In this document: piece by piece, positions 2,335-54,956 of the stretch
How positions within the stretch are numbered: the first letter of the stretch is position 1
Layout of the letters: every line of letters begins with the position of its first letter
Assembly (NCBI GenBank): GCA_026397315.1
Contig: JAPLVC010000004.1
Coordinates: forward strand, 64,001 to 128,000
DNA: 64,000 bases
Direction of reading: 5' to 3'
Source of the DNA: Candidatus Aenigmatarchaeota archaeon
GTDB taxonomy: Archaea; Aenigmatarchaeota; Aenigmatarchaeia; QMZP01; QMZT01
The notes under the pieces: model-generated
Database searches by the model: none
What the model was told of the DNA's origin: nothing
The model's input: only the letters and a program-made list of their open reading frames with translations
Program-made: the position numbers and the translations under genes

Positions 2335-2343
2335 AAATGACAC

Positions 2344-2368: not shown

Positions 2369-2394
2369 ATCCCGGAAGGAGGAAGGTGAAAAAC

Positions 2395-2601: not shown

Positions 2602-2602
2602 A

Positions 2603-2788: not shown

Positions 2789-2789
2789 A

Positions 2790-3883: not shown

Positions 3884-3961
3884 GTTAACGAGAAATTTTG
3901 GTTTTGCTGATTTAAAAACAATGCGACGCGGAACGTCGTGAAACTTATTAGATGGCGCCGT

Positions 3962-25937: not shown

Positions 25938-26264
25938 ATGACAGCAGTAGTGGCAGAACTTAGCGATTCGAATTTCAACGATTTCGTTGCGAAGCACAAG
26001 GTCGCGCTGGTGGATTTTTACGCCGACTGGTGCGGCCCGTGCCAGGCCATGAAACCGGTCATCGACGAGCTAGCCGGCGAGATGAAAGGCAAAGTCTCTT
26101 TTGCGAAAGCGAACATGGACAAGGCCGGCGCTACTGCGAACAAATACGGCATCATGTCCATACCCACGCTGCTCATATTCAAAAACGGCAAGATGATGGA
26201 CAGGCTCGTCGGAGCGTTCCCGAAGGACATGATAAAGCAGAGACTCGCCAAAATGGTCGAGTGA
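25938..26264 (+). CDS. trxA: thioredoxin
   Basis: A 108-residue thioredoxin with active site DWCGPC near residues 30-35, the cis-proline loop SIPTLLIFKNGK and the family's normal length. It lies 8 bases after gdhA. Together with the TrxB-like protein it can supply reducing power; it also lies just before a cluster of exported proteins that are extremely rich in cysteine. No signal peptide, so it acts in the cytoplasm. Confidence 0.95.
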   Translation: MTAVVAELSDSNFNDFVAKHKVALVDFYADWCGPCQAMKPVIDELAGEMKGKVSFAKANMDKAGATANKYGIMSIPTLLIFKNGKMMDRLVGAFPKDMIKQRLAKMVE

Positions 26265-26374: not shown

Positions 26375-29300
26375 ATGGGTAGGGCTACTTTCAGGGGTGG
26401 GTTGATCGTTTTTTCTGCACTTTTGTTGTCTTTCTTTTTTGTGTCCGTTTTGCCTTCGCTGGCATATTTCGCATTTGACGTTCCGGTCGTTGATAACCGC
26501 GACTTGGGCCTTTTCGCGAAAGGCGAACCTATGGACTTCAACATCAACATGACTTTCGACTACCCGTTCCCGCCCGCGGAGAACGCAACGCAGCTAACGG
26601 CCGAGGTCTGGAGAAACGGCGAGATGCTGCAGTCGAAGACGCTCACCTTGAGCAAGTTCCTTGAGAAATATAAAATCGCCAGCAACGGCAAATACGCGTT
26701 CCGCCCCATATATTTCAACTTCTCGGTTTTCGTCGAGGCCAAGAACGTTTCCTACTCGCCGACGACGTTCACATACGGCGTGCGCCAGTCGAGGAGAACG
26801 CCCTACGAGAACGAGGATGACAAGAAATGGAAGGTTTCCGGCAGGATTGTGCAGGGCACACAATATGGTTTCGACATATACAACAACTATTGTTCCGGCC
26901 CGTGGGATTTCAACGAACAAGCTTGGCCCGTATCACGCGGATATATGTGCTACAGGCAGGCGGGCGACGAGGAGTGCAGGAAAGGTGGCGTGTCGGCCAT
27001 AGAGTGTAAGGCCACTTACGGCAGCACCGGCACCGCCCCCTGCGCCTTATGTTGCAGCCCCAGATGTCAACTGTCCAACACCGATTGTGTGTGCATGAAA
27101 TCCGGCTTAAACGAAGATTGTGATACGGAGAATATGCCATGCACCAAGTTCCAACAAAATCCGCAGCAACATTGGGTCACGGTACAAAGCACATGCTGCG
27201 TGGAGCAGGAAATTTTAGGTTACACATGTTCCGCGTCAATCAACGGAATTTGTTTAAAGAACAATGAAGCGGGAAGTCACGAAGAAACTATTGAAATATC
27301 GAGGGGCACTTGGGACGAGGTTTCCGGCGAGACTTCATGGACAGCGCCGGTGCAAAAAGGAGCTGTCCTTTATTTCGAAGTCGGTGACAGCAGGAACGTG
27401 CCCAACGACCCAATCGCGTCGCCGGCAGTGCCTAACATGAAATGGTCTTCCGCGCATTCGTGGAAATTCGAGACCTATGTGATACCCACGCAAAGCGTGA
27501 ACGGCAAGGTGCTCAGGGTTTACCCGGACGACGGCATGAGATATTTCTTTTACAAGCTTGATGCAAACAACAACTGGGTGCCTGCAAGCACTCAGAACTG
27601 GTCCTGCGTTACGGGCCAGTTCGACAATACCGTCCTTGCGGACGGCAAGACTCCTACAAAAATAAACGGCTGCCCGATTTCTCTTTATATGAATAAAAAT
27701 TCGTGGTATAAGCTCGAGTTCTATCTTTACAACGACCCATGGGGCAGGAGCGAAGGCGGCGGAGAAAGCAGCGACAGCGAAAACCCGCTAGGCCTGAGAA
27801 TCGAGGACTACCAGACCAAGTCAGCGTCCCTGCTTGACATCCTCGGGACCGGGAGCATCATGAGCAGCGAGCCGCCGGGAGACGACGGCGCGGTCATAGG
27901 CGGCTCCGCGACAGTATTTGCGAACGAGGGCCTCAAAGAAATAAGGGACTTCAAGATGTTCGCCACCACGCACTCGGTCGACAGCTGCTCCAGCGGCGTC
28001 GACTGCTCGATGAGGGCAGCCTGCGGCAACTCTGATTACAACGGGGTGAAGACGAACAAGTATGGTTGGATACTCAACCACGCCATTTACCCGTTCGAGT
28101 GGAGCGACGTGGGCGGCGTTTCGACGACGAAAGCCGGCTACATAACCAGCACCGGCAAGAACGGCGGGGAAAAAATGGCCATCGACGCGCCGAGCATAAC
28201 ACCCGTGAACGGATACGGGAGATACAAATACACCAACATGTGGTTTGACGACAACACGAGGCATTACATCGGTGGCATTTACAAATGCGCGAAGGAATGG
28301 CCTTCATGGGCGGCTGACTGTCCGGAAGAGAATAACAGATACAGCTACGCGAGAGGCTCTGACCAGATAAAATGCTGCTACGTCAGTTCGACCGTCACTG
28401 GCACCGACCAGAAAGTGACCATCGAATATGACACTAGATACCAATACATTATAAACTTCCTTCCCGGCGCGGGCGACAAGCTCTGCGTCGCTTCGGAATA
28501 CAACGCAGGCAGCGGGGCTGCCATGCAGACGGTCTATCAGTCCAATTACACGAACGCGCTGTGCGACACGAAGACGGGAAGCCGCTGCTGCTACTGCAGG
28601 CCCGGATGGGGCTGCAAGATGGACTGCTCCAACGAACTTAACATGACGGCTTCCAGCAAGTTCGCGCTACCGTTCCCGGCAATAGGACCTTTCTGGGAGA
28701 TTAAGAACGCGCGCATAAGATTCGAAGCTACAGAGCCGCCGGTCGTCATCAACCTTACGTCGGAAGGCAACGCCCAGGACGGGTGGGACATAAAGGCGAA
28801 TCTCGGCGACAGGGCGACGCTGATGCTGGACAAGAACTATACCATACCTCTCAACCTTTACAATGATTTCGGCCTCAAGGCGCCTGATGAAATGCTGACT
28901 GGCGCGAGGGATACACTGAGGCTTTCGCTCAACACTTCCACGACGCTCAGCGGATTTTACATACCATTCTGCAGGATGGAAAACGGCAACACCAGAATAT
29001 CCTGCGACTACACGTTCCACACGGTAGACTGCACTAAGGAAGGCGTCAGGAGCAGCTATTACGATGAAGAAACGTATCCCGCTACCAAGGGCAAGGGCGC
29101 GTGCAAAGCGGGCGTCAGGACATGCGTCAAGTTAGGCGAGAACAACCTTAGGTGGGTCTACGACACCACGAACGACATGCCCGTCTACCCTGCGCCGGAA
29201 ACGTGCAACGGCAAGGACGACGACTGCAACGGGCTGGTCGACGATGTGAAGACTTTCGACATGATAATAAATGAAATAATAAGCGCTGGCGGCAAGAAAA

Positions 29301-32300
29301 ACCCATACCAGGTCACGAAGTGCGCCTGTTTCATGGGAGCTGCGTCGTCTGACGAACGTTGCAACAACATAGACGACGACTGCAACGGCGTCGTGGACGA
29401 CAGCTCTGTTACAATGTGGTCTAACACCTGCGACAGCGCCGTCAAGCAATGTGTGAAAGAAGGCAGCCCGTACGAGTGGTGCAAGAGCCTTTACAACTCA
29501 ACGCAATGCTCGCTTACACAAACGCAGATAACAGTGACGGGCAACGTTACTGTGAACACGTGCACGGAAAAGATGCGCGCCTGCATGGACAACGCTCACG
29601 TTCTGCCGTCCGGTACACAGGTCAAATTCACATACGAAGAATGCAAACAGTTCTACAACAACTATTCCTGTTTCTTTAATGAGAAGAAAATCGTCGCGCT
29701 GGGCGACACGTGCAGGTGCACGCTTTCTAATCCGCAGCCTGAAACGTGCAACGGCGTTGACGACGATTGTAACAACATAATAGACGACGTGGAAAACGCC
29801 ACAACATGTGGCTGCGCTTTCCTTATGAACACGTCACTTGTCGCTAACCTGAAGGCATCCGGCGACGTTTCCTGCGACGGCATAGATTCCGACTGCAACG
29901 GCGCGATAGACGACGGGGCGAAAAATTGCGCGTGCACAGGGAGACCGGCGATAGACGTGGTTGAAATAAAAGGCAAGGTCAAGGAGATGTGCGACGGCAT
30001 AGACAACGACTGCAACGGCCTCACCGACGAGGCGTTCCCGCAGGTGGGCAAGCCGTGCGGCTACGGCCTGTGCTCGGGCGGCATATACGTCTGCGGAGTG
30101 CACGGCGACAAGGCCGTGTGCAACACCACTGTCAATCCGGACGAGACTTTCAACGGCAAGGCCATAAAGCTCAACTACGCCGAGACGTGCGATCTCAGGG
30201 ATAACGACTGCGACTATTCGATTGACGAGGACTGCTCCTGCACGCCGGAAAGCGCTGTCAAGCTGTGCGGCTACCAGAGCGGCATTTACTACAAAGATAA
30301 AACGCAGCTCACGCAGACGTGCAATCAGGCCATGACCGAGCTGAAGAAGCTCATCACGTGGGCCGAAGCGCCTGAGAACGTGAAATACAGGCGCATGCTC
30401 ACGGTCAGGAACAACGAAAACGTGGCGCTGGAAAACTACCCGATAAACTTCAGCCTGAACACTTTCATGTTGAACCAGACCAAGAAGATGCGTCCGGACG
30501 GCGGCGACCTGAGAATATTGCCAGCCGACGGAGAGAAAAATCTCGACTGGAACAACTCCAATCCATTCGTCAGGGCGCAGACGACCATATGGTTCAAGGC
30601 TAGCCTCCCGGCAAACCAGGAGAAGAAATTCTACGTTTATTACGGCAATCCCACAGCGACGTACAAACCGGTCACGCTTAGCGAAGTCACGGGACTCACT
30701 TACGGCATAGGAGTCTTCCTTTTATGCCATTTCGAAGGCACGACCGCTTGCGAGGGAAACATGGTGCCCAGATATGACAACGGCGTGACATTCCAGAGCG
30801 CACAGAGGGAGCTTCTGGGCGAAGTGGTCGATACGCAGGGAGCCTTCATAAACGGCTTCGACAAGCTCACTTACCCGACTTCCGAGAACTTCAACAAGAA
30901 CCGCGGCACGGTAATGATGTGGTTCTATCCTGAAGACGTGACGGAAGATCATTACCTGTTCTATTCTACCGACCTTTCGGGCAATCCGCAGTTCGGCCTG
31001 CATTTCAACGAGAACGGCACGTTCTTCGAGGCGTACGACAAGCTCGGCAACGCCCGCAGGATAAACGGCGGAATAGTCAATATCGGCTGGCATCACATAG
31101 CCGTCACATGGGACAACCTCAAGGGCACGAAAATATACATGGACGGAGCCCTGAGAAACAGCACATCCGCTTCATGGGAAGCGAATGACATAGGCGTTGA
31201 TGTGTACGTCGGCGGCGACGGGACGTCAAAGACGGCTTATTCGCTAATCGACGAGCTGGCGGTCTACTCGCAGGAGCTCGACCAGGCATCCATACGCGAG
31301 AAGATGCGCTATTACAAGCCTTATGTGACGATGGGTCCTGAGGAGACTCTGAACGAAACCGTGGCTACGACCGAAACTGATGTGTATGAAAAATGCACGG
31401 TAATGCTGCAGAACATAAGCGCGGACGAGGCGAAGAAGGCGACGATACTCAGCCTCTGCGATACTGTAAGGATATGCAGCAAGACCGACTTCCCGATAAA
31501 TTCCATAAGCGAATGCACGTTCGGCGTGCAGACGTGCGCTAGCGGTCAATGGGCCGCATGCACGGCAGTCCAGCCGAAGACCGAAGTGTGCAACCTTAAA
31601 GACGACGACTGCAACGGGCTGATAGACGATGTCGCGGTGCCGGAAACATGTGCATGCTCAAACGGCGGCGAGCCCGGCATCGAGTTGTGCAACGGCATTG
31701 ACGACGACTGCAACGGCAAGATAGACGATGTGAGAGGCATGGACACGGCGTTCTCGACGCACTGCGGATGCTACGACCAGATCGTCAACATCACGCAGAA
31801 GAACTCGGAGAAAGAAACGCTGTGCAATGCCATAGACGACAACTGCGACGGCACTATAGACGAGGGCATAGAGAAGTGCGCGTGCGCGGGAACGTCTTTC
31901 AATTCAGCTCTCAACTCAGTGGGGCCCGCTGTCGGAGAAGAGAAGTGCGACGACGTGGACAACGATTGCAACATGGTAATAGACGACCCGTGGATACAGG
32001 GCGGAACCTCGGCGACAAAGTTCGATTACCTTGGAGCGCCGTGCAGCCCGCTCAGCAGCAGGTGCGTGGGCGGCGTATTCGTATGCTCCAAGACTGCGAC
32101 GGACATGGTGTGCAGCACGTCCTCCGGCGACGGCATAAAAGGCCAGGACCTGAGGACGAACGAGACGTGCAACCTACTCGACGACGACTGTAACGGCAAG
32201 ATTGACGACATATGGGGCGACATCTCGGGCAAGTTCTGCAGATGCTACAATGGCGTGCCGAGAGCGAACGAGACGTGCAACGGCATAGACGACGATTGTA

Positions 32301-33745
32301 ACGGCCTGATAGACGACGGCCTCGGCAATTGCGGATGCGCATTTGACATCGAAGACAACGTCAACAACATCAATCAGCTTTCCATCCTGATAAGCGCCAA
32401 GAAAGCGGGCGGCGAGACGTGCAACAACATAGACGACGACTGCAACGGAGCGGTGGACGACGGGCTCGGGAGCGAATGTTTCTGCTCGGGCGGCTTTGCA
32501 GGCAACGCGGCGACAAAGCCCGAATTCTGCAATGGTTTCGACGACGATTGCAACGGCGTCATTGACGACGTAACTTATCCTGAAACATGCGCCTGCTACA
32601 ACGGAACCGTCAAAGCAGGCAAGCAGGCGGAAATATGCGACGGCATCGATAACGATTGTAACGGGCTCGTCGACGAGGACTGGCCCATGCTCGGCAGCAT
32701 GTGCGGCGTCGGCGCCTGCTCGAACGGCGTTTACGAATGCCTGCCAAGCGGAACCGGAACCGCATGCTCGACCATGGAAGGCGGCTCGGATGACAAATCG
32801 AAAGACGAGGAATGCGGCAATAATATTGACGATAACTGCAACGCGGTCACGGACGAGAACTGCATCTGCGACGTGGCCGGCGAGACCAGGAAGTGCAGCT
32901 CCAACGTGGGCGAATGCAGGGAAGGCGTACAGACGTGCAGCGCTGACAAGGAATGGAGCGGTTGCATAGGCGGCGTGCTGCCTGCGATTGAAACGTGCAA
33001 CGGCAAGGACGACGACTGCAGCGGAGCGATAGACGATTTATCGGGCGGCAAATGCGGCTGCTACGGAGGGGCGTCGCCCAAGACTGAGTCGTGCAACGGC
33101 ATCGATGACGACTGTAACGGGGCGATAGACGATGTAAGCGGCAAGAGCTCAGTCGAAGCGACGCAGTGCGGCTGCTACGACAACGCTTACGCGAAGGGCG
33201 CTAAACCGGAGGCGTGCAACAGGATTGACGACGACTGCGACGAGATCATAGACAATGTTAAGGACGGCACTTCAGTCGAATCCGCGAGATGCGCCTGCTA
33301 CAACAACGGTTATGCAGGCGTTGAAAGCTGCAACGGCATAGACGACGACTGCGACGAGGCGACGGATGAGGACTGGCCGAACGTTGGTCAGGACTGCGGC
33401 CAGGGCATATGCACTTCGACTTTCGTATGCTCGCCCGACGGCAAGACGCTTTCATGCAATGGCGCAATGCCACAGACGGAAGTATGCGACGGCAAGGACA
33501 ACAACTGCAACGGGCTGGTCGATGAAGGATGCTTCGGCTCAGAGGTCGGCAGTTGCGAGAACATGGTGCAGGACAGCAACGAGGAAGGGATTGACTGCGG
33601 CGGCGTATGCCCGGTGGCATGCTCGGCCCAGCAGATCATAAATCCCGCATCCGGCTCGTGGATGATAGTCTTCGCCGCGCTTGTGGTAGTCATAGTCGCG
33701 GTAGGCATAGTCCTGGTGTTCATGAAACCGGGAGCGTCGGTTTAA
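26375..33745 (+). CDS. giant secreted, membrane-anchored protein with 21 MopE-type metal-binding repeats, DUF2341 and LamG domains
   Basis: The 2456-residue protein begins with a signal peptide (hydrophobic to about residue 33) and ends with one transmembrane helix (about residues 2427-2450) and a very short tail, so nearly all of it lies outside the cell. Residues 35-300 are beta-rich with a dense cysteine patch (about 170-290). A DUF2341-like domain (about 1333-1432) is followed by a LamG/concanavalin-like domain (about 1442-1650). I count 21 copies of the MopE-type motif C-[ND]-x-x-D-[DNS]-[DN]-C-[NDS]-x-x-x-D-[DEN], six before the DUF2341/LamG part and fifteen after it. The Asp-rich loops suggest Ca2+ or Cu binding plus disulfides. 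Predicted role: surface adhesion or metal capture. Confidence 0.85.
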   Translation: MGRATFRGGLIVFSALLLSFFFVSVLPSLAYFAFDVPVVDNRDLGLFAKGEPMDFNINMTFDYPFPPAENATQLTAEVWRNGEMLQSKTLTLSKFLEKYKIASNGKYAFRPIYFNFSVFVEAKNVSYSPTTFTYGVRQSRRTPYENEDDKKWKVSGRIVQGTQYGFDIYNNYCSGPWDFNEQAWPVSRGYMCYRQAGDEECRKGGVSAIECKATYGSTGTAPCALCCSPRCQLSNTDCVCMKSGLNEDCDTENMPCTKFQQNPQQHWVTVQSTCCVEQEILGYTCSASINGICLKNNEAGSHEETIEISRGTWDEVSGETSWTAPVQKGAVLYFEVGDSRNVPNDPIASPAVPNMKWSSAHSWKFETYVIPTQSVNGKVLRVYPDDGMRYFFYKLDANNNWVPASTQNWSCVTGQFDNTVLADGKTPTKINGCPISLYMNKNSWYKLEFYLYNDPWGRSEGGGESSDSENPLGLRIEDYQTKSASLLDILGTGSIMSSEPPGDDGAVIGGSATVFANEGLKEIRDFKMFATTHSVDSCSSGVDCSMRAACGNSDYNGVKTNKYGWILNHAIYPFEWSDVGGVSTTKAGYITSTGKNGGEKMAIDAPSITPVNGYGRYKYTNMWFDDNTRHYIGGIYKCAKEWPSWAADCPEENNRYSYARGSDQIKCCYVSSTVTGTDQKVTIEYDTRYQYIINFLPGAGDKLCVASEYNAGSGAAMQTVYQSNYTNALCDTKTGSRCCYCRPGWGCKMDCSNELNMTASSKFALPFPAIGPFWEIKNARIRFEATEPPVVINLTSEGNAQDGWDIKANLGDRATLMLDKNYTIPLNLYNDFGLKAPDEMLTGARDTLRLSLNTSTTLSGFYIPFCRMENGNTRISCDYTFHTVDCTKEGVRSSYYDEETYPATKGKGACKAGVRTCVKLGENNLRWVYDTTNDMPVYPAPETCNGKDDDCNGLVDDVKTFDMIINEIISAGGKKNPYQVTKCACFMGAASSDERCNNIDDDCNGVVDDSSVTMWSNTCDSAVKQCVKEGSPYEWCKSLYNSTQCSLTQTQITVTGNVTVNTCTEKMRACMDNAHVLPSGTQVKFTYEECKQFYNNYSCFFNEKKIVALGDTCRCTLSNPQPETCNGVDDDCNNIIDDVENATTCGCAFLMNTSLVANLKASGDVSCDGIDSDCNGAIDDGAKNCACTGRPAIDVVEIKGKVKEMCDGIDNDCNGLTDEAFPQVGKPCGYGLCSGGIYVCGVHGDKAVCNTTVNPDETFNGKAIKLNYAETCDLRDNDCDYSIDEDCSCTPESAVKLCGYQSGIYYKDKTQLTQTCNQAMTELKKLITWAEAPENVKYRRMLTVRNNENVALENYPINFSLNTFMLNQTKKMRPDGGDLRILPADGEKNLDWNNSNPFVRAQTTIWFKASLPANQEKKFYVYYGNPTATYKPVTLSEVTGLTYGIGVFLLCHFEGTTACEGNMVPRYDNGVTFQSAQRELLGEVVDTQGAFINGFDKLTYPTSENFNKNRGTVMMWFYPEDVTEDHYLFYSTDLSGNPQFGLHFNENGTFFEAYDKLGNARRINGGIVNIGWHHIAVTWDNLKGTKIYMDGALRNSTSASWEANDIGVDVYVGGDGTSKTAYSLIDELAVYSQELDQASIREKMRYYKPYVTMGPEETLNETVATTETDVYEKCTVMLQNISADEAKKATILSLCDTVRICSKTDFPINSISECTFGVQTCASGQWAACTAVQPKTEVCNLKDDDCNGLIDDVAVPETCACSNGGEPGIELCNGIDDDCNGKIDDVRGMDTAFSTHCGCYDQIVNITQKNSEKETLCNAIDDNCDGTIDEGIEKCACAGTSFNSALNSVGPAVGEEKCDDVDNDCNMVIDDPWIQGGTSATKFDYLGAPCSPLSSRCVGGVFVCSKTATDMVCSTSSGDGIKGQDLRTNETCNLLDDDCNGKIDDIWGDISGKFCRCYNGVPRANETCNGIDDDCNGLIDDGLGNCGCAFDIEDNVNNINQLSILISAKKAGGETCNNIDDDCNGAVDDGLGSECFCSGGFAGNAATKPEFCNGFDDDCNGVIDDVTYPETCACYNGTVKAGKQAEICDGIDNDCNGLVDEDWPMLGSMCGVGACSNGVYECLPSGTGTACSTMEGGSDDKSKDEECGNNIDDNCNAVTDENCICDVAGETRKCSSNVGECREGVQTCSADKEWSGCIGGVLPAIETCNGKDDDCSGAIDDLSGGKCGCYGGASPKTESCNGIDDDCNGAIDDVSGKSSVEATQCGCYDNAYAKGAKPEACNRIDDDCDEIIDNVKDGTSVESARCACYNNGYAGVESCNGIDDDCDEATDEDWPNVGQDCGQGICTSTFVCSPDGKTLSCNGAMPQTEVCDGKDNNCNGLVDEGCFGSEVGSCENMVQDSNEEGIDCGGVCPVACSAQQIINPASGSWMIVFAALVVVIVAVGIVLVFMKPGASV

Positions 33746-33788
33746 TCGGAATTCAATACGGCAACGAGAACAGAATGGGTGTGTTGGA

Positions 33789-34205
33789 ATGAAGGGTATC
33801 TCACCTTTGGTAGCCACTATAATGCTGATAGCCTTCGCTCTTGCGGTTTCCGGCATGCTTTTCTCGTGGGTTTACCAGTTCACCTATGCACAGAGAGAGG
33901 AATTGCAGTTATGCTCCTCGGCACAGATATCCCTGAACAATGCATACTACAACCCGCAGACGGGCAACATCAACATGGTCGTTTATAATACAGGCGGCGT
34001 GCCGCTGACAGGCTTTGCCGTGCTCATATCGACTGACAAGAGTGCTGAAACGTCGAAAGACTTCGCGACAAAGGAAGTCGCAGTGAACGACATAGGCCTT
34101 TTCCCGGTGAAATACAGCGAAGGCGTCCGCTCGATAGTCGTGCAGTCCACGCAGTGCAGGAACGCGCAGGACATGATAAGCATCTATGACGTAGAGGGAT
34201 TGTGA
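33789..34205 (+). CDS. archaellin/type IV pilin-like protein with class III signal peptide
   Basis: The 138-residue protein starts MKGISPLVATIMLIAFALAV, the pattern of archaeal class III signal peptides: a short basic start, then G followed by a long hydrophobic helix beginning ISPLVAT. A prepilin peptidase (PibD/FlaK) would cut after the KG. The rest is a beta-rich domain with NPQTGNINMVVYNTGGVPL, common in archaeal pilins, and two cysteines. It lies 43 bases after the giant MopE protein and may polymerise or serve as a membrane-anchored partner. No pilus assembly ATPase is present in the window. Confidence 0.8.
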   Translation: MKGISPLVATIMLIAFALAVSGMLFSWVYQFTYAQREELQLCSSAQISLNNAYYNPQTGNINMVVYNTGGVPLTGFAVLISTDKSAETSKDFATKEVAVNDIGLFPVKYSEGVRSIVVQSTQCRNAQDMISIYDVEGL

Positions 34206-34271
34206 CTGTAAATCAATAGACTGCAATATATTATACTAAATAAAAAAATATAATATTGGAGAGTGAGGGCA

Positions 34272-35486
34272 ATGGATAAAGATAAAAACAGGGCAATGGC
34301 AGCGGTTTTTCTCGTTTTCATATCATGCGTTTTAATCACCATAAGCTTTTCATCGATCACCCAGGTATCGGCCGCGGTAAATATTGAAAAAACATGGGAC
34401 TGCTCCAGCGGCTTCTCATGTGGAAGCAATACAATGGGCCTGTGCACGTCTACACTAAAGCCGTATCTTTCCATGTTCAACAACCAGTATTCTTTCAGCC
34501 TTGCTGTCGAGAAGCCCGGCGCCTATACATGCACTGTAAAAGTGACTGCGAACCACTTCGACTTCCCAGATGGCAAGACGGACGAGCCGAACGAGGTGAC
34601 GGACGTCTCGCTTAACGGCATCACGATAGGCTCGACCGTGGACAGCTGGTGCCAGCCGGGCAGCGTGCCATGCGTCAACCCGGATGTGTGCACGACTTGC
34701 CTGTCATACGGATGCACGCAAAAATACAATGGCGACTGCCCTGACGGTTGCAGATGCCCGTGCAAGACGCCGTCCGAATCCGGCAATAGCATGAATGCCC
34801 TGCAAAGCAGCAGCGGCTCCTTCGGCGGCTCCATATGTTTCAATATAAAGAATCTCAACGCTCTGATAAATTCGGCGCACAGGGATGGCGAGGGAGCTGT
34901 TATAGCGTTCAGCAGCCCGAACAACAGGCAATATTTCGCCATAATACACGGTATTGGCGGGAGCATACTTTTCCACAGGTTCGGATTCTGCTTTGCATGC
35001 TCATGCACGAACTGGTGCGGCGTAGGCGGCGCTGGAACAATTACCGCCAGGGAAGGAGTCACGTATAAAATACAGAAGACAGGTCCGTACACACTGGCTT
35101 TTTCCGACGGCACAACAACCCTAACATATAATGCAGCCAATGACAATGACAACGGAGCGACCATACAACAAAAGTTCCGGAACGGCATAGAGTTATCGCA
35201 GTATTGCGTTGGTTCGGGATGCGCGTGGAATGGCCATCCTTTCTTCCCTTTCGTGGACGGCAATGCGGCAATTGAAATAGTCGATTGCAGCATCGGTGTA
35301 ATATGCGACAATGACGGCACATGCGATGTCGGCGAGAATCCCGTCAACTGCCCGAATGATTGCGGCGGAAACGACGGAGAATGCAAAAACATGGATGAAA
35401 GATGCAGCATATCGGCCGGCGATTGCTGCACCGGCTTAATCTGTATAAAGGTGGGGCCGGTCAATCGCTGCGTGCCGGCAGATTAA
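34272..35486 (+). CDS. secreted Cys-rich surface protein, paralogue A
   Basis: A 404-residue protein with a signal peptide (to about residue 36). Its N-terminal domain shares with the gene at 39067 the sequence EVTDVSLNGI-x-IGSTVDSWC and the preceding NHFDFP segment. A Cys-rich patch (about 135-165) and a GSICFNIKNL domain follow, then C-x-N-x-G-x-C-x-x-x-E-N-x-x-N-C-x-N-D-C and a last DERCSISAGDCCTGLICI knot-like module. About 28 cysteines suggest many disulfides. It has no anchor helix. After its TAA, the same frame continues past TAG into a further Cys motif (see the relic at 35487). The ATG at 34272 is preferred because GTGAGGG precedes it. Confidence 0.7.
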   Translation: MDKDKNRAMAAVFLVFISCVLITISFSSITQVSAAVNIEKTWDCSSGFSCGSNTMGLCTSTLKPYLSMFNNQYSFSLAVEKPGAYTCTVKVTANHFDFPDGKTDEPNEVTDVSLNGITIGSTVDSWCQPGSVPCVNPDVCTTCLSYGCTQKYNGDCPDGCRCPCKTPSESGNSMNALQSSSGSFGGSICFNIKNLNALINSAHRDGEGAVIAFSSPNNRQYFAIIHGIGGSILFHRFGFCFACSCTNWCGVGGAGTITAREGVTYKIQKTGPYTLAFSDGTTTLTYNAANDNDNGATIQQKFRNGIELSQYCVGSGCAWNGHPFFPFVDGNAAIEIVDCSIGVICDNDGTCDVGENPVNCPNDCGGNDGECKNMDERCSISAGDCCTGLICIKVGPVNRCVPAD

Positions 35487-35567
35487 GGATAGTGCGGCGA
35501 CGGCCCCTGCGACACGGACGAAACCAGATTTAACTGCCAGTCAGACTGCGGGCAGGAACCGGCGTGA
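35487..35567 (+). pseudogene. in-frame relic of a lost C-terminal Cys module
   Basis: Directly after the TAA of the preceding gene the frame reads one codon, TAG, and then 24 codons giving CGDGPCDTDETRFNCQSDCG and four more residues before TGA (35565-35567). This is a clear copy of the C-x-D-G-x-C-x-x-x-E-x-x-x-N-C-x-x-D-C-G module that occurs inside that gene. Two stops within three codons favour recent decay over programmed readthrough. Confidence 0.65.
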
Positions 35568-35623
35568 CATCATTATAATTGAAATGCGTGTGAGCGCGTG
35601 ATATTGATCGGAGGTGTTGGTTG

Positions 35624-38600
35624 ATGAACAAGAAAATGGTGGCTGTTTTCAGCGTGTTTTTGTTAGCGGGGGTTTTGGCGTTTTTTGTAACGAGCGTTAA
35701 TTCGGAGGTATGCGAGGTATGCTCGGACGTGGAAAATACGTTCACCCTCGACGAGGTTGCGCTCGGCGCCACCAATACCATAACCCTGAAGGGCTACGAG
35801 AGCCACGGGCTCAAGTCGCTTTCAATAAGCTGCGAGCTCATTTGCGGCAGGCTGGGCGACTACTGCTGTTTCGACGTCTCCAAGAACAAGTGGAAATGCG
35901 CTTATGATTACCTCTATTGCAACCAGCCCAACGAGAACGGCAAATGTGTCGAGGACAAGATTCCGCCGTCCGTGGGCATAGTCGGTGTCCCATCGAGCGC
36001 AGTTTCGCCTCCGGGCGGCTCGTGCAGCGTTTATTCAGCAAGCGACGTGATTGCAAAGGTCGCTTGCACGGACGCTGAAACAGGCTGCGACAATTCGAAC
36101 CTCCTGCTCGAGATAGATGAAGTCAAAAAAGCCTCGTGCCCGCAAAACGAGAACAGTTATTTTTCCGTATCAACGAGCGGCTACCTTGCCAACAGGCCGT
36201 ATTACATCTGCGCCGCAGCGAAGGATCTTGCCGGAAACATAAACTACACCAAGACCCCAGTCCAGTTCTGCACCAGCACCGGCGAACCCATAAGGCCGTG
36301 GCTTTATGCTGAATCAGTAGGCGGCTCGATAATCAATCTCGTCTGGAGCCAGGCGGGCCTCAACTCGCCGAACTTCGACAGGTATGAACTGTATTATGAA
36401 AAGAACCCGCAGAAAGATAATTTCGACGTGAGCCCGCTTAACCTGAAAGCGACTATAAGGGAAGAAAAACTCGATAATTTTTACCAGGTGACCGGTCTCG
36501 AGAAAAACACCAAATACTGTTTCAGGGTCGTGGTCTTCGACAAGACCTCACCAAAAGCCCGCAACACCACATCTGACAGCCTTTGCCTGACGACCGTGGA
36601 ATGCAACCCCGGCGAAAAGACGCAGTGCTTCACCAGGGACTGGACGACTTATTACGGCGACGAGGTCTACCTGCCATCAGGCAGTCCCTGCATTGCAGGC
36701 GAGGCCACGTGCGACGGCGGCTACTGGAGCGCCTGCATGAACCAGGTCGGACCGTTCGAAGAAAAGTGCAATAACATCGACGACGACTGTGACGGCATGA
36801 CTGACATGGAGATTGATTATGTGGAATGGGGTTATGATTACGTGCCGCTGAAAAAACTATGCATAGGATTAGGCGAATGCGGCTACGGCTATGTGGAATG
36901 CCTGAACGGCCAGTGGCAGGGCGATGCCAAATGCAGCAGCTACTCGCTGGCTAAAACGGAGACATGCAACGGCCTTGACGACGACTGTGACGGCGTTGTT
37001 GATGACGTGGGCGGCGGCAATTCCATCATTTCGACCCGCTGCGGCTGCTACAACATAAACAACGACCCCACCGTGATGCCCAGCTCAGAAGTCTGCAACG
37101 GCATCGATGACGATTGTGACGGGACGATAGACAATGTCTTTGTCGGTTATTCCGCAACATCTTCCAGGTGCGCCTGCTACAACGGAGCAAAAACGCCAGG
37201 CCAGCAGCAGGAAACGTGCAATGAAATCGACGACGACTGTAACGGCGTCGTGGACGACGGCATGACTGGCAGCGAGGGATGGCTTGTGAAGCTCGGCAGT
37301 GGATGGCCTGACTGGTCTGAATACTGCGGCACAGGGACGCCTTGCGACGGCGGCCACTGGGAATGCAACGCCGGCGGAACGGGCGTAGTGTGCTCCACCA
37401 TAGGCGGCGGAGAGAATAAGGCAACGAACGAGACGTGCAACGGCATAGACGACGACTGCGACGGCAGCGTGGACGAGGGATGTGCCTGCTCGCCTCCCGG
37501 AAACTGGAGCACATGCGGCATCGACAAGGGAGAGTGCGCCCTTGGCCAGCGGCAATGCAGCAGCGAAGGCGTATGGGGCACGTGCATAGGGGACAAGAAA
37601 CCAAAGACGGAAATATGCAACGGCAAGGATGACAACTGTAACGGCGTGACCGACGATGTTTATGGCGGCAATTCAGTAAATTCGACTCAATGCCGCTGCT
37701 ACAACGGAGGGACGCCTTCTCAGGAATCCTGCAACGGCATAGACGACGACTGCGACGGCATCGTGGATGATGTAGTAACTGGCGGAAAGACAATCGCCGT
37801 GAATCGCTGCGGCTGCTACTTCAACGGCAGTTCTACGAGAGTCCTTCCAGGGCAAAATAAAGAAATATGCGACGACGTGGACAACGACTGCAACGGCGTC
37901 GTGGACGACCCGTGGAGCGGGAACCTCGGCAAAGACTGCGGCTACGGCGCTTGTGCGGGCGGCAAAATCGTCTGCAAGACGACCGGTAATGACACTGTTT
38001 GTTCGACCAACAGTCCTTACGGCATAGGCAATTCCACTGATAAAAGGAGCGTGGAGACATGCAACAGTCTCGACGACGACTGTGACGGCGTTGTTGATGA
38101 CGTGGGCGGGAAACAGTCAGCCGCCGAAGCCCAGTGCGGCTGCTACGGCGGAGCGGCCAAAAAAGACGAGTTCTGCAACAAGATAGACGACGACTGCGAC
38201 GGAGGGATTGACGAAAACCTGCTGTGCGCATGCTTCGCCGGCCAGAAAAAGGCCTGCGGCTCGGCCATAGGAGAATGCGAACTGGGCGAGGCCGAATGCA
38301 GCGGCGGCGTATGGGGCACGTGCACGGGCGGCAAAAAGCCTGCGAAAGAAACGTGCAACATGAAAGACGACGACTGCGACGGCATTATAGACAATGTTAA
38401 CAGCGGATATTCAGTCGAAGAGACTCAGTGCGGCTGCTACAACGGACGGAAACCAGCGGTTGAGAAGTGCGACGGCATAGACAACGACTGCAACGTCAAG
38501 ACAGACGACAACATCGACTGTAGCTGTGATGAGGGCGACGAGATGCAATGCGGCTCGAACGTCGGCGAGTGCACGCCCGGCCTTAAGAAATGCATAAACG

Positions 38601-39037
38601 GCAGATGGGGCGAATGCAGCGGAGGCGTGCTGCCCAAGAAGGAAGCGTGCAACGGCATCGACGACGACTGCAACGGCGTCATAGACGACGTGAACGGCGG
38701 CAACTCGGTCGGCTCTTCAAAATGCGCATGTTATAACAAGTTCTCCGTGCCAAACACGCAGGAAGAAGTGGCCAACGGCATAGACGACGACTGTGATGGA
38801 GCGATAGACGAGGGATATTCAAATGAACCCAGCCACTGCCAGAACGGCTTCAAGGACGGGGATGAGCAAGGCGTCGACTGCGGCGGCTCGTGCAGGAAGA
38901 TGTGCGCCCAGCCGATTCCCATGAATACTTGGATACTCATATTCGCCGTCATTGCGGGCGTGATAGCGGTCTTCGGTATATTCATAAGTTCTTTCTGGAA
39001 GAAAGAGACGAAGTCGCTGTTCGAAAGAGTTAAATGA
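35624..39037 (+). CDS. secreted, membrane-anchored protein with fibronectin III domain and 14 MopE-type repeats
   Basis: The 1137-residue protein has a signal peptide (to about residue 26), a beta-rich N-terminal region, a fibronectin type III domain (about 223-325, NLVWSQAG to CFRVVVFD), then 14 MopE-type repeats (about 381-1065) and a C-terminal helix WILIFAVIAGVIAVFGIFI (about 1101-1120) with a short basic tail. In the last repeat the first Cys is Ala (EVANGIDDDCDG). Between repeats are modules such as C-G-x-x-x-G-E-C-x-x-G. It resembles the C-terminal half of the giant protein at 26375. The ATG at 35624 follows GGAGGTG. Confidence 0.85.
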   Translation: MNKKMVAVFSVFLLAGVLAFFVTSVNSEVCEVCSDVENTFTLDEVALGATNTITLKGYESHGLKSLSISCELICGRLGDYCCFDVSKNKWKCAYDYLYCNQPNENGKCVEDKIPPSVGIVGVPSSAVSPPGGSCSVYSASDVIAKVACTDAETGCDNSNLLLEIDEVKKASCPQNENSYFSVSTSGYLANRPYYICAAAKDLAGNINYTKTPVQFCTSTGEPIRPWLYAESVGGSIINLVWSQAGLNSPNFDRYELYYEKNPQKDNFDVSPLNLKATIREEKLDNFYQVTGLEKNTKYCFRVVVFDKTSPKARNTTSDSLCLTTVECNPGEKTQCFTRDWTTYYGDEVYLPSGSPCIAGEATCDGGYWSACMNQVGPFEEKCNNIDDDCDGMTDMEIDYVEWGYDYVPLKKLCIGLGECGYGYVECLNGQWQGDAKCSSYSLAKTETCNGLDDDCDGVVDDVGGGNSIISTRCGCYNINNDPTVMPSSEVCNGIDDDCDGTIDNVFVGYSATSSRCACYNGAKTPGQQQETCNEIDDDCNGVVDDGMTGSEGWLVKLGSGWPDWSEYCGTGTPCDGGHWECNAGGTGVVCSTIGGGENKATNETCNGIDDDCDGSVDEGCACSPPGNWSTCGIDKGECALGQRQCSSEGVWGTCIGDKKPKTEICNGKDDNCNGVTDDVYGGNSVNSTQCRCYNGGTPSQESCNGIDDDCDGIVDDVVTGGKTIAVNRCGCYFNGSSTRVLPGQNKEICDDVDNDCNGVVDDPWSGNLGKDCGYGACAGGKIVCKTTGNDTVCSTNSPYGIGNSTDKRSVETCNSLDDDCDGVVDDVGGKQSAAEAQCGCYGGAAKKDEFCNKIDDDCDGGIDENLLCACFAGQKKACGSAIGECELGEAECSGGVWGTCTGGKKPAKETCNMKDDDCDGIIDNVNSGYSVEETQCGCYNGRKPAVEKCDGIDNDCNVKTDDNIDCSCDEGDEMQCGSNVGECTPGLKKCINGRWGECSGGVLPKKEACNGIDDDCNGVIDDVNGGNSVGSSKCACYNKFSVPNTQEEVANGIDDDCDGAIDEGYSNEPSHCQNGFKDGDEQGVDCGGSCRKMCAQPIPMNTWILIFAVIAGVIAVFGIFISSFWKKETKSLFERVK

Positions 39038-39066
39038 TCGCACAGGCGCGCGAGGGTTTGAAAAGC

Positions 39067-40236
39067 ATGAAAAGGGATAGAGTCTTAGCTTGGTCTTTCA
39101 TTTTAATCACAGCTGCGGCTGCAGCTTTGCTCACAACCGCTTTAATGCCCGCGAATTCCAGGGCAAGCGCAACGACGACCATAGACAAGACCTTCACATG
39201 TTCTGACGGCTTCACTTCAGGCTGTTTCAAGACAGGATGCATGGCCGAGAGACAGCTCAAGATGAGCAATAACCAATACACTCTTGCTTTCACCGCGCCG
39301 AAGGCTGGTGATTACATGTGCACGATAACAGCGGTGACCAATCACTTTGATTTCCCTGAAGGGGGGTCTGAGACCAGCGAGGTGACGGACGTCTCGCTTA
39401 ACGGCATCAAGATAGGCTCGACCGTGGACAGCTGGTGCCCGCCTGGCGGGACTACCAATCCTCCGATGCCCAAATGCGACCTGAATATCGAATGCTGTGG
39501 TCCAAGGGCATCGACACTCGATTGTAACAGATATCCTGAGAGCAGTGTGAGCTGCACGGAGCCGAAGCTCCTTTGCGACGATGACCCGATGAGCTTAGCC
39601 GCTATTACTAGCAGCGGCAAGGAAATAACCATGAGCCTCGAGAACTGCAAGCCCGGTGCCGTGGCTTTCGTAAGGCAAGGCAATTTCAAACCCCGCTGCC
39701 AGAACTGGCAGTTCACCACGGGCAGTGGCATCCGCTGCCCGGTAAGCGATTCCATAACCGGCGGCAAGCTGATAGCGACTTATGACTGCAGCAAAACGCG
39801 CAATTACAACATCAATCTGGATTTCCTTGTAGTCGGTAAAAGTTATACCTTGGGTGTTTGGGCTCCGTTCACGGCAACTGGCTGGAGCAGCATCAACGTC
39901 TGCGCGACAGGCATTTCTCCTTATTATTCTGAAACAAAGACCGACACGGGCGACGGCATATGCATGGGCGTCACGCCGCCAGTTAACTGCGGCAACGGGG
40001 TGATAGACGCAGGCGAGGAGTGCGACGGCAGCAACCTTAACGGCAAAACGTGCGCCAGCTTCGGATATGATGCAGGCACGCTCGCCTGCAGTAGCAGTTG
40101 CAAGTTTGACAAATCAGACTGCCTCGAATGCAAGCGTCAAGACGAAATATGCAGCATAGGGGAACACGACTGCTGCCCTGGTCTTGTGTGCACAAAATCA
40201 GGCTCACGTAATTATTGCATGGCTGAAGTCGAATGA
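39067..40236 (+). CDS. secreted Cys-rich surface protein, paralogue B
   Basis: A 389-residue protein with a signal peptide (MKRDRVLAWSFILITAAAAA onward) and the same N-terminal domain as the gene at 34272 (NHFDFP and EVTDVSLNGIKIGSTVDSWC). The C-terminal part has CGNGVIDAGEECDGSNLNG and SCKFDKSDC, the DUF4215-like repeat, then DEICSIGEHDCCPGLVC, which parallels the end of paralogue A. About 25 cysteines. An in-frame ATG at 39034 overlaps the previous stop (ATGA); I prefer 39067 because of the signal-peptide shape and the GAGG upstream. Confidence 0.7.
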   Translation: MKRDRVLAWSFILITAAAAALLTTALMPANSRASATTTIDKTFTCSDGFTSGCFKTGCMAERQLKMSNNQYTLAFTAPKAGDYMCTITAVTNHFDFPEGGSETSEVTDVSLNGIKIGSTVDSWCPPGGTTNPPMPKCDLNIECCGPRASTLDCNRYPESSVSCTEPKLLCDDDPMSLAAITSSGKEITMSLENCKPGAVAFVRQGNFKPRCQNWQFTTGSGIRCPVSDSITGGKLIATYDCSKTRNYNINLDFLVVGKSYTLGVWAPFTATGWSSINVCATGISPYYSETKTDTGDGICMGVTPPVNCGNGVIDAGEECDGSNLNGKTCASFGYDAGTLACSSSCKFDKSDCLECKRQDEICSIGEHDCCPGLVCTKSGSRNYCMAEVE

Positions 40237-40269: not shown

Positions 40270-40764
40270 TCAAGGCAGCCTGATATCGGAAAGCAGCGTC
40301 ATATATCTGTCCAAGCGCTTTATTTCCTTTTCTAGCATTTCTATCGCCCTGAGGACGTCTTTCTTGTCCTCGCCGTGCATATCCCTTAGCTGCGATTTAG
40401 CGTTCTCGAAGTCCGCCAGCGAGCCCGATATGCCTTTCTTCACGCGCATTAGAAATATCTTCTTGAGCGACTCGAGCAGGTTGCCGTTCAGCTCGATGTA
40501 AAGCCTGCGATCCTGCGACTTCTTCACTTTCCTGACTATGCCCAGTACTTCAAGGAAGTCCATGCTCAGGGAAATCATGGATATCGAATAGCCCGTCTTA
40601 CTGGCAATGTCCTGGAGCGACATGGAGCCGCCGCCTATGATGAGTGCCCCTATTATATTGCCATGTATTGGGGAGAAACCGATAGACTTCGCCAGCTCGG
40701 AGAACGTTTCCAGGATCTTCTTTTCCACGTCCTGGACGCCTTTGCCTGCATCGTGCTCTTCCAT
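40270..40764 (-). CDS. GbsR/MarR-family winged-helix regulator
   Basis: A 164-residue protein with the GbsR layout: an N-terminal helix ending in GFSPIHGNIIGALIIGG, the recognition helices SLQDIASKTGYSISMISLSMDFLEVLGIV, the wing with RRLYIEL, then a long C-terminal helical dimerisation part. Family members control compatible-solute or lipid genes. It is divergent from tes, with 117 bp between, and is the obvious candidate to control tes. Confidence 0.8.
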   Translation of the reverse strand: MEEHDAGKGVQDVEKKILETFSELAKSIGFSPIHGNIIGALIIGGGSMSLQDIASKTGYSISMISLSMDFLEVLGIVRKVKKSQDRRLYIELNGNLLESLKKIFLMRVKKGISGSLADFENAKSQLRDMHGEDKKDVLRAIEMLEKEIKRLDRYMTLLSDIRLP

Positions 40765-45605: not shown

Positions 45606-45751
45606 CGGGCGTGGGGGGATTCGAACCCTCGACCTCAGGCTTTCTTCGATATCACCGGAATTTCTTCCTCAAATCTTCCAAGATTCCTGCGCATCAAGAT
45701 GCTCAAAATCGCATAGAAGGCCAGAGCTCTATCCAGCTGAGCTAAACGCCC
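45606..45751 (-). tRNA. tRNA-Arg (UCU) with a 72-nt intron
   Basis: Read on the minus strand, the 5' exon is 45751-45714 (38 nt) and the 3' exon 45641-45606 (36 nt). They form an acceptor stem GGGCGT/ACGCCC, a D arm GCTC/GAGC, an anticodon loop CTTCTA-A with anticodon TCT, and a T loop TTCGAAT. The intron (45642-45713) lies after position 37, the canonical archaeal place, and contains a GCAT-CTTG-ATGC hairpin. CCA is not encoded. Three pairs look mismatched: T7-C66, T28-T42 and A50-C64. It decodes AGA (and AGG by wobble). Confidence 0.88.
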
Positions 45752-52079: not shown

Positions 52080-54464
52080 ATGAAAAACACGATTAAGAAT
52101 TTTGGGTTTAGCGTTTTGGCTTTGTTAGCTGTTGTTATGATAGTGATGCCGGGGGCTTTGGCCGTGCCAAACACGCCACCGGTTATAGATTCTATATCCA
52201 TCACACCGGAAATCCCCAGCAAGTATAACGACCTGGTATGTTCTGTGAGCGTTTCGGACGCCGAAGGGAATCTGGATTATGTTCATTTCAGCTGGTATGT
52301 GAACGGCGTTCTGACGAAGGAAAACAACAAGGTATTATACGGCTCTGCCAGCACTGCTTCGGACGTTTTCAGCGGCTCCAAGGAAGCGAACGATTACGTT
52401 GTTTGCGAGGCTAAGGCATACGACTTTGAAAGCGCGTATGACCGCGAAACTCATGCTGTCCGCGTAGGAACTGTGACTACTATTTCTGTACCACAAATAT
52501 CCTACGTGGATATAACCCCAAGACACCCCAACCCTCAACAAGATTTGACGTGCTCAGTCTTCGCGACTGACGCGGATGATAATCTTGATCATGTTACGTT
52601 CGAATGGATAGTAAACGGCCGCATGATCAGGTCCGCAGCCAAATACATGGAAGGCTCTTCAGACGTTGCTAGCGACACGCTCGAAGTGAGTCGCACGCAA
52701 CAGGGCGACCTGATAAGATGCAAGGCTAGCGTCGCGGACGCGAGCAGCATGGTCGCTACTGCGGAGTCAGTGACCGTCGTAATGGGAGCCAGCACGTATC
52801 CTTACACACCAACCACACCGACGACGCCCACGTATGGCAGGCCAACGGCCGTGCTTAAGATATATGACAACACCGTCGACGTAGAAGACGTGGCACATTT
52901 CTCAGGCCACGATTCTTACGCGCCGAGCGGCCACTACGTCGACCAGTACATGTTCGATTACGGTGACGGACAGGAGTCCGCATGGCAGCCTGATGCGAAC
53001 GGTTATCATTCTTACGAAGAAGACGACACGTATTACGTGAGGCTCAAAGTCAAGGACGAAAACGGCGTTGAATCCAACTGGAGTCCCGCGTCCATAGTGT
53101 ACGTGGGAACAGGCTCCGGAGGAAGCAGCAGCCACATCTCCATAGACGACATGAGCATAATCAAGGCCGCTGGAAGCGGCTACACGAGGTTCGAGTGCAA
53201 CGTCGAAGTGTTCGACAAGAGCGACGACCTCGATTACGTGAGATTCAAGTGGTATCTCAACGACGACCTCATGTCCAACGACAAGGCGACCGTGTCAGGC
53301 GGCAGCGACGAGGCGAGCGACGAGATAAGCCTGCTTACGGACGACGAGGATGTGATAAAGTGCGAAGCGATAGTATACGACCAGAAGCATAACTCGGCGA
53401 CGGCGACGAGAACGACAGGCGGCTCCGCTGTAGGCGAGGGATGCAACCTGGTTGTGACGAAATTCGACTATCTCACATACATGATTCAAGGTAAAACAGC
53501 GTACGTAGACGCGGAAGTCCAGAACACCGGCTCGTCCGGCAGCATCACGATGAAGCTTTACGTGGACGGCTCGCTTAAAGACACGTACTCCTCTCATGCC
53601 AATTACAACGCGAAAGTCTCGAAGAAATTCGAGTTCGCACTGGCGACCGGTTCGCACAAGATAAAGCTTGATGTATACATGCCGTGCGGGGCGAAGGACA
53701 CGAAAACCGCGGAAATAACGGTTTTCGCGGCAGACTCGACCGGCTTCATTCCAAAGGAGAAGCAGGAAAGCGGAACCGATGGCATAACGCAGACCAGCGT
53801 CAAGATAACGCCGGCAGCGCTCGATATAGCGATAAACAAGGGCGACGTCGTGACCGTCTATATAGAGAGCCCGGCGCAGACGAAGTTCACCATAACCGTC
53901 GATGGCATTCCAGAAAACTGGGCCAGCTACCCGGCAGAAGTCGACGTGAAAGGAGCCAAAACGGCTTTCGTATACATTGTTCCCAAAACAGTCGGCAATT
54001 ATAATTTCGTAGTGAAAGTAAGCGGCGCGGGCAGGAACTACGAGCAGAACATCGCCCTTTATGTCGCTCCCGAAAACGGAATGCAGAACGGTGCCAGCGG
54101 CCTTACGGGCCTGATAAGCGGCCTTGAAAGCAACTGGCTCATAGGGGCGGCGTTCATCGCTGTCCTGGCCGTGCTCGCTGTTTTGTATTTCCTGGCAGGC
54201 AAAATGGCAAAAGGCAAGAAGAAATACGAGGACCACGTTTACGGCGAGCGCAGGACTCCGTACTATGGGCAATATTCGGCCCAGACGCAGCCCAGGATGA
54301 TGAAAGGTTCGATGGGCATTCCTGTAAAAGCCGCGGTACCGCAGGTTCAGCGTGTCCAGAGAATGCCTCAGATGACGCGCGCGGATTGGCTTTCGAGAGT
54401 AATGAGCGGCAGGTACTCTGACGGTACTGGATACCCGAAGCGCGGCATAGACTTCATGAAGTAG
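52080..54464 (+). CDS. secreted surface protein with Ig-like and PKD-type domains and C-terminal anchor
   Basis: The 794-residue protein has a signal peptide (to about residue 29), two related Ig-like domains (about 33-135 and 138-235), each containing DLxCSVxxxDA-x-x-NLD-x-V-x-F-x-W, a PKD domain (about 256-340, HFSGHDSYAPSG and FDYGDGQES), a third copy of the Ig-like domain (about 350-445), a CARDB-like domain (about 450-550), a further beta domain, and one transmembrane helix (about 686-706). The last 85 residues form a cytoplasmic tail rich in Tyr, Met, Gln and Arg. Such proteins are S-layer-like or adhesive. Confidence 0.8.
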   Translation: MKNTIKNFGFSVLALLAVVMIVMPGALAVPNTPPVIDSISITPEIPSKYNDLVCSVSVSDAEGNLDYVHFSWYVNGVLTKENNKVLYGSASTASDVFSGSKEANDYVVCEAKAYDFESAYDRETHAVRVGTVTTISVPQISYVDITPRHPNPQQDLTCSVFATDADDNLDHVTFEWIVNGRMIRSAAKYMEGSSDVASDTLEVSRTQQGDLIRCKASVADASSMVATAESVTVVMGASTYPYTPTTPTTPTYGRPTAVLKIYDNTVDVEDVAHFSGHDSYAPSGHYVDQYMFDYGDGQESAWQPDANGYHSYEEDDTYYVRLKVKDENGVESNWSPASIVYVGTGSGGSSSHISIDDMSIIKAAGSGYTRFECNVEVFDKSDDLDYVRFKWYLNDDLMSNDKATVSGGSDEASDEISLLTDDEDVIKCEAIVYDQKHNSATATRTTGGSAVGEGCNLVVTKFDYLTYMIQGKTAYVDAEVQNTGSSGSITMKLYVDGSLKDTYSSHANYNAKVSKKFEFALATGSHKIKLDVYMPCGAKDTKTAEITVFAADSTGFIPKEKQESGTDGITQTSVKITPAALDIAINKGDVVTVYIESPAQTKFTITVDGIPENWASYPAEVDVKGAKTAFVYIVPKTVGNYNFVVKVSGAGRNYEQNIALYVAPENGMQNGASGLTGLISGLESNWLIGAAFIAVLAVLAVLYFLAGKMAKGKKKYEDHVYGERRTPYYGQYSAQTQPRMMKGSMGIPVKAAVPQVQRVQRMPQMTRADWLSRVMSGRYSDGTGYPKRGIDFMK

Positions 54465-54478
54465 CGGAGGCATGTTAC

Positions 54479-54793: not shown

Positions 54794-54956
54794 GCCGCAA
54801 ATGCCGACAAAATTCTCGAGATGCTCTCAAAACCGCCATCCGATTAACCGATAGCGCTTTTTGGAATCTGTTAACAATATCTGTTTTTAAAATTTCACTG
54901 TCATAGAATTTCATAAAGTGTTACATTAATTAACCAATCTCTTTGGTGGTGGTTTT

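What the first reader, a model, noticed from the sequence alone, without database searches (positions are those of the whole stretch)
26375..39037. Two exported proteins with 21 and 14 MopE-type metal-binding repeats
The 2456- and 1137-residue proteins carry dozens of C-N-G-x-D-D-D-C-[ND]-G-x-x-D-D loops and have a signal peptide plus one C-terminal helix. The repeat resembles the copper-binding MopE motif and Ca-binding loops. Such density predicts a long, rigid, heavily disulfide-bonded stalk that may bind tens of metal ions. In one protein the repeats are interrupted by DUF2341 and LamG domains, in the other they follow a fibronectin III domain, as expected for adhesion or host contact.
Basis: partly seen in the sequence, partly recalled or inferred. 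Interest (0 to 1): 0.7.

Follow-up and report, generated by a model that had tools for sequence, protein, structure and literature searches.

The report
Cysteine-rich, calcium-type archaeal surface stalks
A small archaeon encodes two large exported proteins built from dozens of copies of a cysteine-stapled, acidic loop that most likely holds calcium rather than copper, making membrane-anchored stalks; the repeat family was already known, but these are well-conserved giant examples in a conserved gene cluster with a pilin-like gene.

Summary
The 2456- and 1137-residue proteins carry 21 and 14 MopE-type loops (Pfam PF11617, 194 and 162 bits), an N-terminal export signal and one C-terminal helix. 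DUF2341 and LamG interrupt the first array; a weak fn3 precedes the second. Shuffled sequences give almost no loops.

The copper reading is not supported. MopE's copper site is two histidines plus a kynurenine; the 35 loops contain no histidine. Their ligand spacing (D-x-[DN]-x-[DNS]-G-x-[IV]-D) is that of calcium loops. The only PDB look-alikes, sub-significant, are subtilase stretches probably at a known calcium loop. Against a relative at 60% identity, 97 of 97 cysteines and 18 of 18 loops are conserved. I favour calcium-bound, disulfide-stapled, membrane-anchored stalks that display heads, probably for adhesion.

The locus is a conserved but variable cassette between GDH-thioredoxin and MarR, holding stalk proteins, a type IV pilin-like protein and cysteine-rich secreted proteins. 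The repeat occurs in 37 of 41 genomes of the order. The six-cysteine unit also occurs in Myxococcota and large phage contigs; no solved structural relative was found.

A real, well-conserved new member of a known but poorly characterised repeat family.

The parts
26375..33745 (+). Stalk protein 1 (2456 aa), 21 MopE-type loops
26462..29089 (+). Head of stalk protein 1 (residues ~30-905): no Pfam or PDB match; conserved at 37% and 26% identity in two related genomes
29204..30241 (+). First repeat array (residues 944-1289), 6 loops
30497..30661 (+). DUF2341 match (residues 1375-1429)
   Evidence: 27.3 bits
30860..31294 (+). LamG/ConA-like lectin domain, Laminin_G_3 (residues 1496-1640)
   Evidence: 60.1 bits
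31589..33538 (+). Second repeat array (residues 1739-2388), 15 loops
33635..33742 (+). C-terminal transmembrane helix and tail of stalk protein 1, preceded by a Cys motif (D-x-x-E-x-G-[IV]-D-C-G-G-x-C) also seen in relatives
33789..34205 (+). 138-aa archaeal type IV pilin-like protein, paralogue (44.5%) of a pilin at G000:C2
34263..35486 (+). 407-aa exported Cys-rich protein with C-terminal knottin-like cysteine spacing
35624..39037 (+). Stalk protein 2 (1137 aa), 14 MopE-type loops
36311..36544 (+). Fibronectin type III-like domain (residues 231-308)
   Evidence: 22.9 bits; 26.2 bits
36767..38824 (+). Repeat array of stalk protein 2, 14 loops
38912..39001 (+). C-terminal transmembrane helix of stalk protein 2
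39034..40236 (+). 400-aa exported Cys-rich paralogue of the 407-aa protein; overlaps the end of stalk protein 2 by 4 bases
25938..26264 (+). Thioredoxin (no export signal), syntenic neighbour
40270..40764 (-). MarR-like regulator, conserved right border of the cassette

Best explanation
The two genes encode membrane-anchored cell-surface stalk proteins. Each is exported by an N-terminal signal, held by one C-terminal helix, and built largely of small modules. Each module starts with an acidic loop (C-[ND]-G-x-D-[DN]-[DN]-C-[DN]-G-x-[IV]-D-[DE]) that most likely holds one Ca2+ through Asp/Asn oxygens, and is closed by disulfides formed within the module. Chained modules make an extended stalk that displays an N-terminal head and, in protein 1, a looped-out DUF2341-LamG pair, most likely for attachment to other cells or surfaces. 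Shown: the anatomy, the conservation of the cysteines and loop ligands, and the conserved gene cassette. Inferred: the metal, the disulfides, the extended shape and the adhesive role.
For: All 35 loops satisfy EF-loop-like positions 1, 3, 5, 8 and 9 with D, D/N, D/N/S, hydrophobic (or Thr) and D; 28/35 have Gly at 6; none contains His. Against the G007 relative (60.1% identity over 1292 aligned residues), Cys is kept 97/97, Trp 14/14, the acidic ligand positions 18/18, and identity is 76% in loops vs 56% outside. Cys per unit is 4, 6, 8, 12 or 14 apart from two neighbouring units with 7 each, where one Cys is shifted by a residue. The closest PDB sequences, though sub-significant (E 2.3-4.3), are subtilase stretches such as GVDDDSNGVVDDVYG; their place in the chain fits SUB1 loop 1, which binds two Ca2+ (PMC4024747). 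Calcium protects MopE from proteolysis (PMC3423442) and CorA holds a structural Ca2+ (PMC3912023). AlphaFold orders a single unit well (pLDDT 82.4). LamG proteins are abundant in DPANN archaea, some at pilus loci, and are proposed for host contact (PMC5498576). TraA of myxobacteria offers a head-plus-Cys-rich-stalk precedent (PMC6372800).
Against: EF-loop position 12 (the bidentate Glu) is absent (1/35), so Ca affinity is uncertain. The array model has pTM 0.39 and no structure is similar, so rigidity is untested. VKOR and DsbB were not found; only two membrane-anchored DsbA-like proteins were seen, one with a degenerate CPYT site, so the oxidant for disulfides is unknown. No binding partner is known.
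Confidence: 0.55

Rival explanations
1. Structural coat or S-layer-associated protein: same calcium/disulfide stalk, but its job is to shape or protect the envelope, not to adhere.
For: The repeat occurs in nearly every genome of the order (37/41), on stalk-plus-anchor proteins with differing heads, as expected for a general surface component. The genome has other large exported Ig/PKD proteins.
Against: LamG/DUF2341 and fn3 insertions and variable heads suit ligand display better. Cassette content differs among close genera, unlike an essential coat.
Confidence: 0.2
2. Pilus-associated adhesin: stalk protein 1 works with the pilin-like protein encoded directly downstream, as part of a dedicated type IV pilus-like structure.
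For: The stalk 1 tail and a pilin are adjacent also in G004, 4 bases apart, followed by MarR. The pilin is a paralogue of another pilin of the genome (44.5%) that lies near a T2SSE/PilB3-like ATPase.
Against: G007 has stalk 1 directly followed by MarR with no pilin. The stalk proteins have their own signal and membrane anchor, and no assembly genes lie in the cassette.
Confidence: 0.14
3. Copper (or other soft-metal) binding or storage protein, as the Pfam name suggests.
For: Family name; very many cysteines, which could bind Cu(I) if reduced.
Against: MopE*'s copper ligands are two His and a kynurenine; no His in 35 loops and 5 in about 1840 array residues. The profile finds no MopE chain in the PDB. 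Even, conserved exported cysteines suggest disulfides. No copper-handling gene was recognised among the neighbours examined.
Confidence: 0.05

Closest known systems
Pfam PF11617 Cu-binding_MopE (putative metal-binding motif) repeat proteins of Myxococcota
   Same: Same loop and the same six-cysteine unit: alignment A4 lines up archaeal units with Polyangium, other Myxococcota and phage-contig units, with six Cys, loop Asp and a Glu invariant
   Different: The archaeal arrays mix four-, six- and eight-cysteine units, carry a C-terminal helix anchor and, here, a DUF2341-LamG insertion
Methylococcus MopE* / Methylomicrobium CorA copper proteins
   Same: MopE gave the Pfam family its name; both carry a structural Ca2+ (PMC3912023)
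   Different: Copper site made of His with kynurenine; the repeat profile matches no MopE chain in the PDB
Calcium loop of subtilases (SUB1 loop 1, deseasin MCP-01)
   Same: Near-identical D-x-[DN]-x-N-G-x-[IV]-D-D spacing
   Different: Single loop in an enzyme, no Cys in the loop; similarity sub-significant and probably convergent
Thrombospondin type 3, dockerin, EF-hand and LDL-receptor A calcium modules (from general knowledge)
   Same: Acidic loops holding calcium, often chained, some disulfide-stapled
   Different: None of these Pfam families matches at E <= 0.1
Myxobacterial TraA receptor
   Same: Recognition head on a cysteine-rich repeat region proposed as a stalk (PMC6372800)
   Different: No homology tested or claimed; different repeats and sorting signal
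LamG surface proteins of DPANN archaea (e.g. Mia14)
   Same: LamG domain, exported, some at type IV pilus loci (PMC5498576)
   Different: No MopE repeats mentioned in that paper

Membership tests
PF11617 Cu-binding_MopE repeat family | Score above curated cut-off (27 bits) | tested here: met
   194.4 and 162 bits
PF11617 Cu-binding_MopE repeat family | Whole Cys-rich unit shared with bacterial members, not just the loop | tested here: met
   A4: 38 units, C, D and E columns invariant; units were chosen for having 6 or 8 Cys
MopE/CorA copper proteins | Two His plus kynurenine copper site | tested here: not met
   No His in 35 loops; no MopE chain found by the repeat profile in the PDB at E<=10. 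Presence of the MopE chain in the PDB copy was not checked separately
MopE/CorA copper proteins | Measured copper binding | not testable with these tools
   Needs purified protein
EF-hand family | Pfam EF-hand match and bidentate Glu at loop position 12 | tested here: not met
   No match at E<=0.1; position 12 is D/E in 1/35
EF-hand-like (D-x-D-x-D-G) calcium loops, as a way of working | Oxygen ligands at positions 1, 3, 5, 9 with hydrophobic or Thr at 8 | tested here: met
   35/35
Thrombospondin type 3 / LDL-receptor A | Pfam match | tested here: not met
   Absent from the list at E<=0.1
LamG (Laminin_G_3) | Score above cut-off | tested here: met
   60.1 vs 27.6 bits
Archaeal type IV pilin (33789-34205) | Class III signal / pilin N-terminal domain model | tested here: inconclusive
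   TIGR02537 19.7 vs cut-off 20; UpsA 8.8e-8 but below its cut-off; 44.5% identical to a protein that passes PF07790

The most novel reading that the evidence does not exclude
Stalk proteins, the duplicated pilin and the knottin-like secreted proteins form one dedicated surface apparatus of this archaeal lineage: a calcium- and disulfide-built attachment organelle encoded by a variable cassette between thioredoxin and MarR.
Probability: 0.12. Interest if true: 0.65.

Novelty: new member of a known kind. Interest (0 to 1): 0.4.

Why it matters
The repeat is annotated as copper-binding from its name; correcting this to a likely calcium/disulfide stalk module affects how many archaeal and myxobacterial surface proteins are read. 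The unit occurs in archaea, Myxococcota and phage contigs, yet no structural relative was found, so one crystal structure of a short array would settle metal, disulfides and geometry for the whole family. If adhesive, these proteins are candidates for how small archaea hold on to partners.

Tried and rejected
Copper binding by analogy with MopE: rejected. A PA14-like head in protein 1 (suggested to me by the YPDDG stretch): no Pfam support at E<=10. PDB profile search of the head gave only weak intein hits, owing to the Hint insert of the G007 relative. Structural match of the unit or array: none. Naming the organism by its relatives: the one scan of named genomes returned mostly Myxococcota and Deltaproteobacteria through the repeats, so the archaeon is unnamed; an archaeal SSU rRNA is present (1352 bits), DPANN is an inference from the 1.05 Mb genome and its genes. 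RNA elements inside the locus: none credible. An exported oxidoreductase in the cassette: the neighbouring thioredoxin has no signal peptide. Literature on the repeat as such, beyond MopE and CorA: nothing found.

Full report
Observation. Both reading frames are intact and the loop counts, 21 and 14, are right. LamG and DUF2341 sit between the two arrays of protein 1; the fn3 of protein 2 is weak (22.9 bits in the whole protein, 26.2 alone). Hydropathy shows one strongly hydrophobic segment at each end and none between.

What the loop is. Aligned over 35 copies, residues 5 (D), 8 (C) and 13 (D) never vary; residue 7 is D/N, 9 is D/N/S, 12 is I, V or T, and 10 is G in 28. That is the oxygen-ligand spacing of EF-hand-like calcium loops without the last Glu. 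No loop contains a histidine. The copper in the family name comes from MopE, whose copper is held by His132, His203 and a kynurenine made from Trp130, and which calcium protects from proteolysis (PMC3423442); its relative CorA holds a structural calcium by acidic side chains (PMC3912023). Searching the PDB with the repeat profile found no chain named MopE, only sub-significant hits to subtilases at GVDDDSNGVVDDVYG or GIDNDGNGYIDDV. In SUB1 a surface loop at about that place binds two calcium ions (PMC4024747); that the matched stretch is this loop is my inference from chain position.

What the unit is. Cysteines come in even numbers in nearly every unit (two neighbouring units with seven each reflect a shifted cysteine). 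An alignment of 38 six- or eight-cysteine units lines up archaeal, Myxococcota and phage-contig copies with six cysteines, the loop aspartates and a glutamate before the next loop invariant, so the whole unit, not just the loop, is one family. AlphaFold orders a single unit (pLDDT 82.4, pTM 0.56, short strands, no helix), but a 224-residue array only poorly (66.9, 0.39). Neither resembles any solved structure.

Conservation. The G007 relative aligns over residues 1154-2456 at 60.1% identity with 97 of 97 cysteines, 14 of 14 tryptophans and the acidic ligand positions of all 18 loops kept; loops are 75.8% identical, the rest 55.8%. The array is thus orthologous unit by unit between genera, not a recent expansion. 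A G001 relative of protein 2 shows the same over its last 317 residues (63.7%, 97% of 32 Cys). PF11617 occurs in 37 of 41 genomes of the order but in only 36 of 115 drawn from the class, 24 of them in this order. Many order members have 750-860 aa proteins with the same stalk, a D-x-[ND]-E-x-G-[IV]-D-C-G-G-x-C type motif and a terminal helix, but different N-terminal parts.

Locus. In the window: GDH, thioredoxin, stalk 1, pilin-like protein, 407-aa Cys-rich protein, stalk 2, 400-aa paralogue, then MarR (opposite strand) and a radical SAM gene. G007: GDH, thioredoxin, start of stalk 1 on one contig; end of stalk 1, MarR, radical SAM on another. G004: stalk 1 tail, pilin, MarR, radical SAM. G001: stalk 2 tail, Cys-rich paralogue, MarR. 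The borders are fixed and the content varies. The pilin is a paralogue of one beside a PilB3-like ATPase on contig 2.

How it likely works. Shown: export and anchor segments, repeat composition, conservation of cysteines and acidic ligands, cassette. Inferred: calcium occupancy, intra-unit disulfides, an extended stalk, and display of heads for attachment. LamG proteins in DPANN have been proposed for host contact and some are linked to pilus loci (PMC5498576); TraA gives a precedent for a cysteine-rich stalk under a recognition head (PMC6372800). Weak points: no VKOR or DsbB was found, only two membrane-anchored DsbA-like proteins; affinity without the position-12 ligand is unknown; the head of protein 1 has no recognisable fold.

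Organism. The genome is 1.05 Mb, 91% complete, with an archaeal SSU rRNA and a tRNA with an apparent intron. DPANN membership is an inference; the taxon was not named.

Verdict. A correct and careful observation of a known repeat family. The copper label should be dropped in favour of a likely calcium/disulfide stalk. The most worthwhile follow-ups are a structure of a short array and a test of the stalk-pilin link.

Noticed in passing
L042-L053 (e.g. L043:4674-7001, L048:2890-5097): Twelve viral contigs (up to 201 kb; DnaK- and deformylase-like genes near one) encode about 650-776 aa lipoprotein-like proteins with mostly 7-8 MopE loops and, in those read, a C-terminal D-x-S-G-S-M domain resembling vWA.
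   Followed up: partly
L030 (G007 contig 36), residues ~235-366 of the protein at 1184-4635: The G007 relative of stalk protein 1 has a Hint/intein-like domain inserted in its head (PT-HINT 32.6 bits, cut-off 27.7), where the window protein has a Cys-rich stretch.
   Followed up: partly
window 34263-35486 and 39034-40236: Paralogous secreted Cys-rich proteins end in a C-x6-C-...-CC-x4-C-...-C spacing typical of knottins; no Pfam match.
   Followed up: partly
G000:C6:162006-165533 (L035:12007-15534): 1175-aa subtilase (PF00082) carrying one MopE loop.
   Followed up: no
L032 (G006 contig 7): Open frame of 9724 codons with a few MopE loops, a giant surface-type protein in a 1.2 Mb genome.
   Followed up: no
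window 45606-45751 (-): tRNA gene of 146 bases, apparently with an intron, found by Rfam but missed by ARAGORN as run here.
   Followed up: no
window 52080-57008: Two more exported proteins with PKD and CARDB/Ig-like domains, likely surface proteins.
   Followed up: partly
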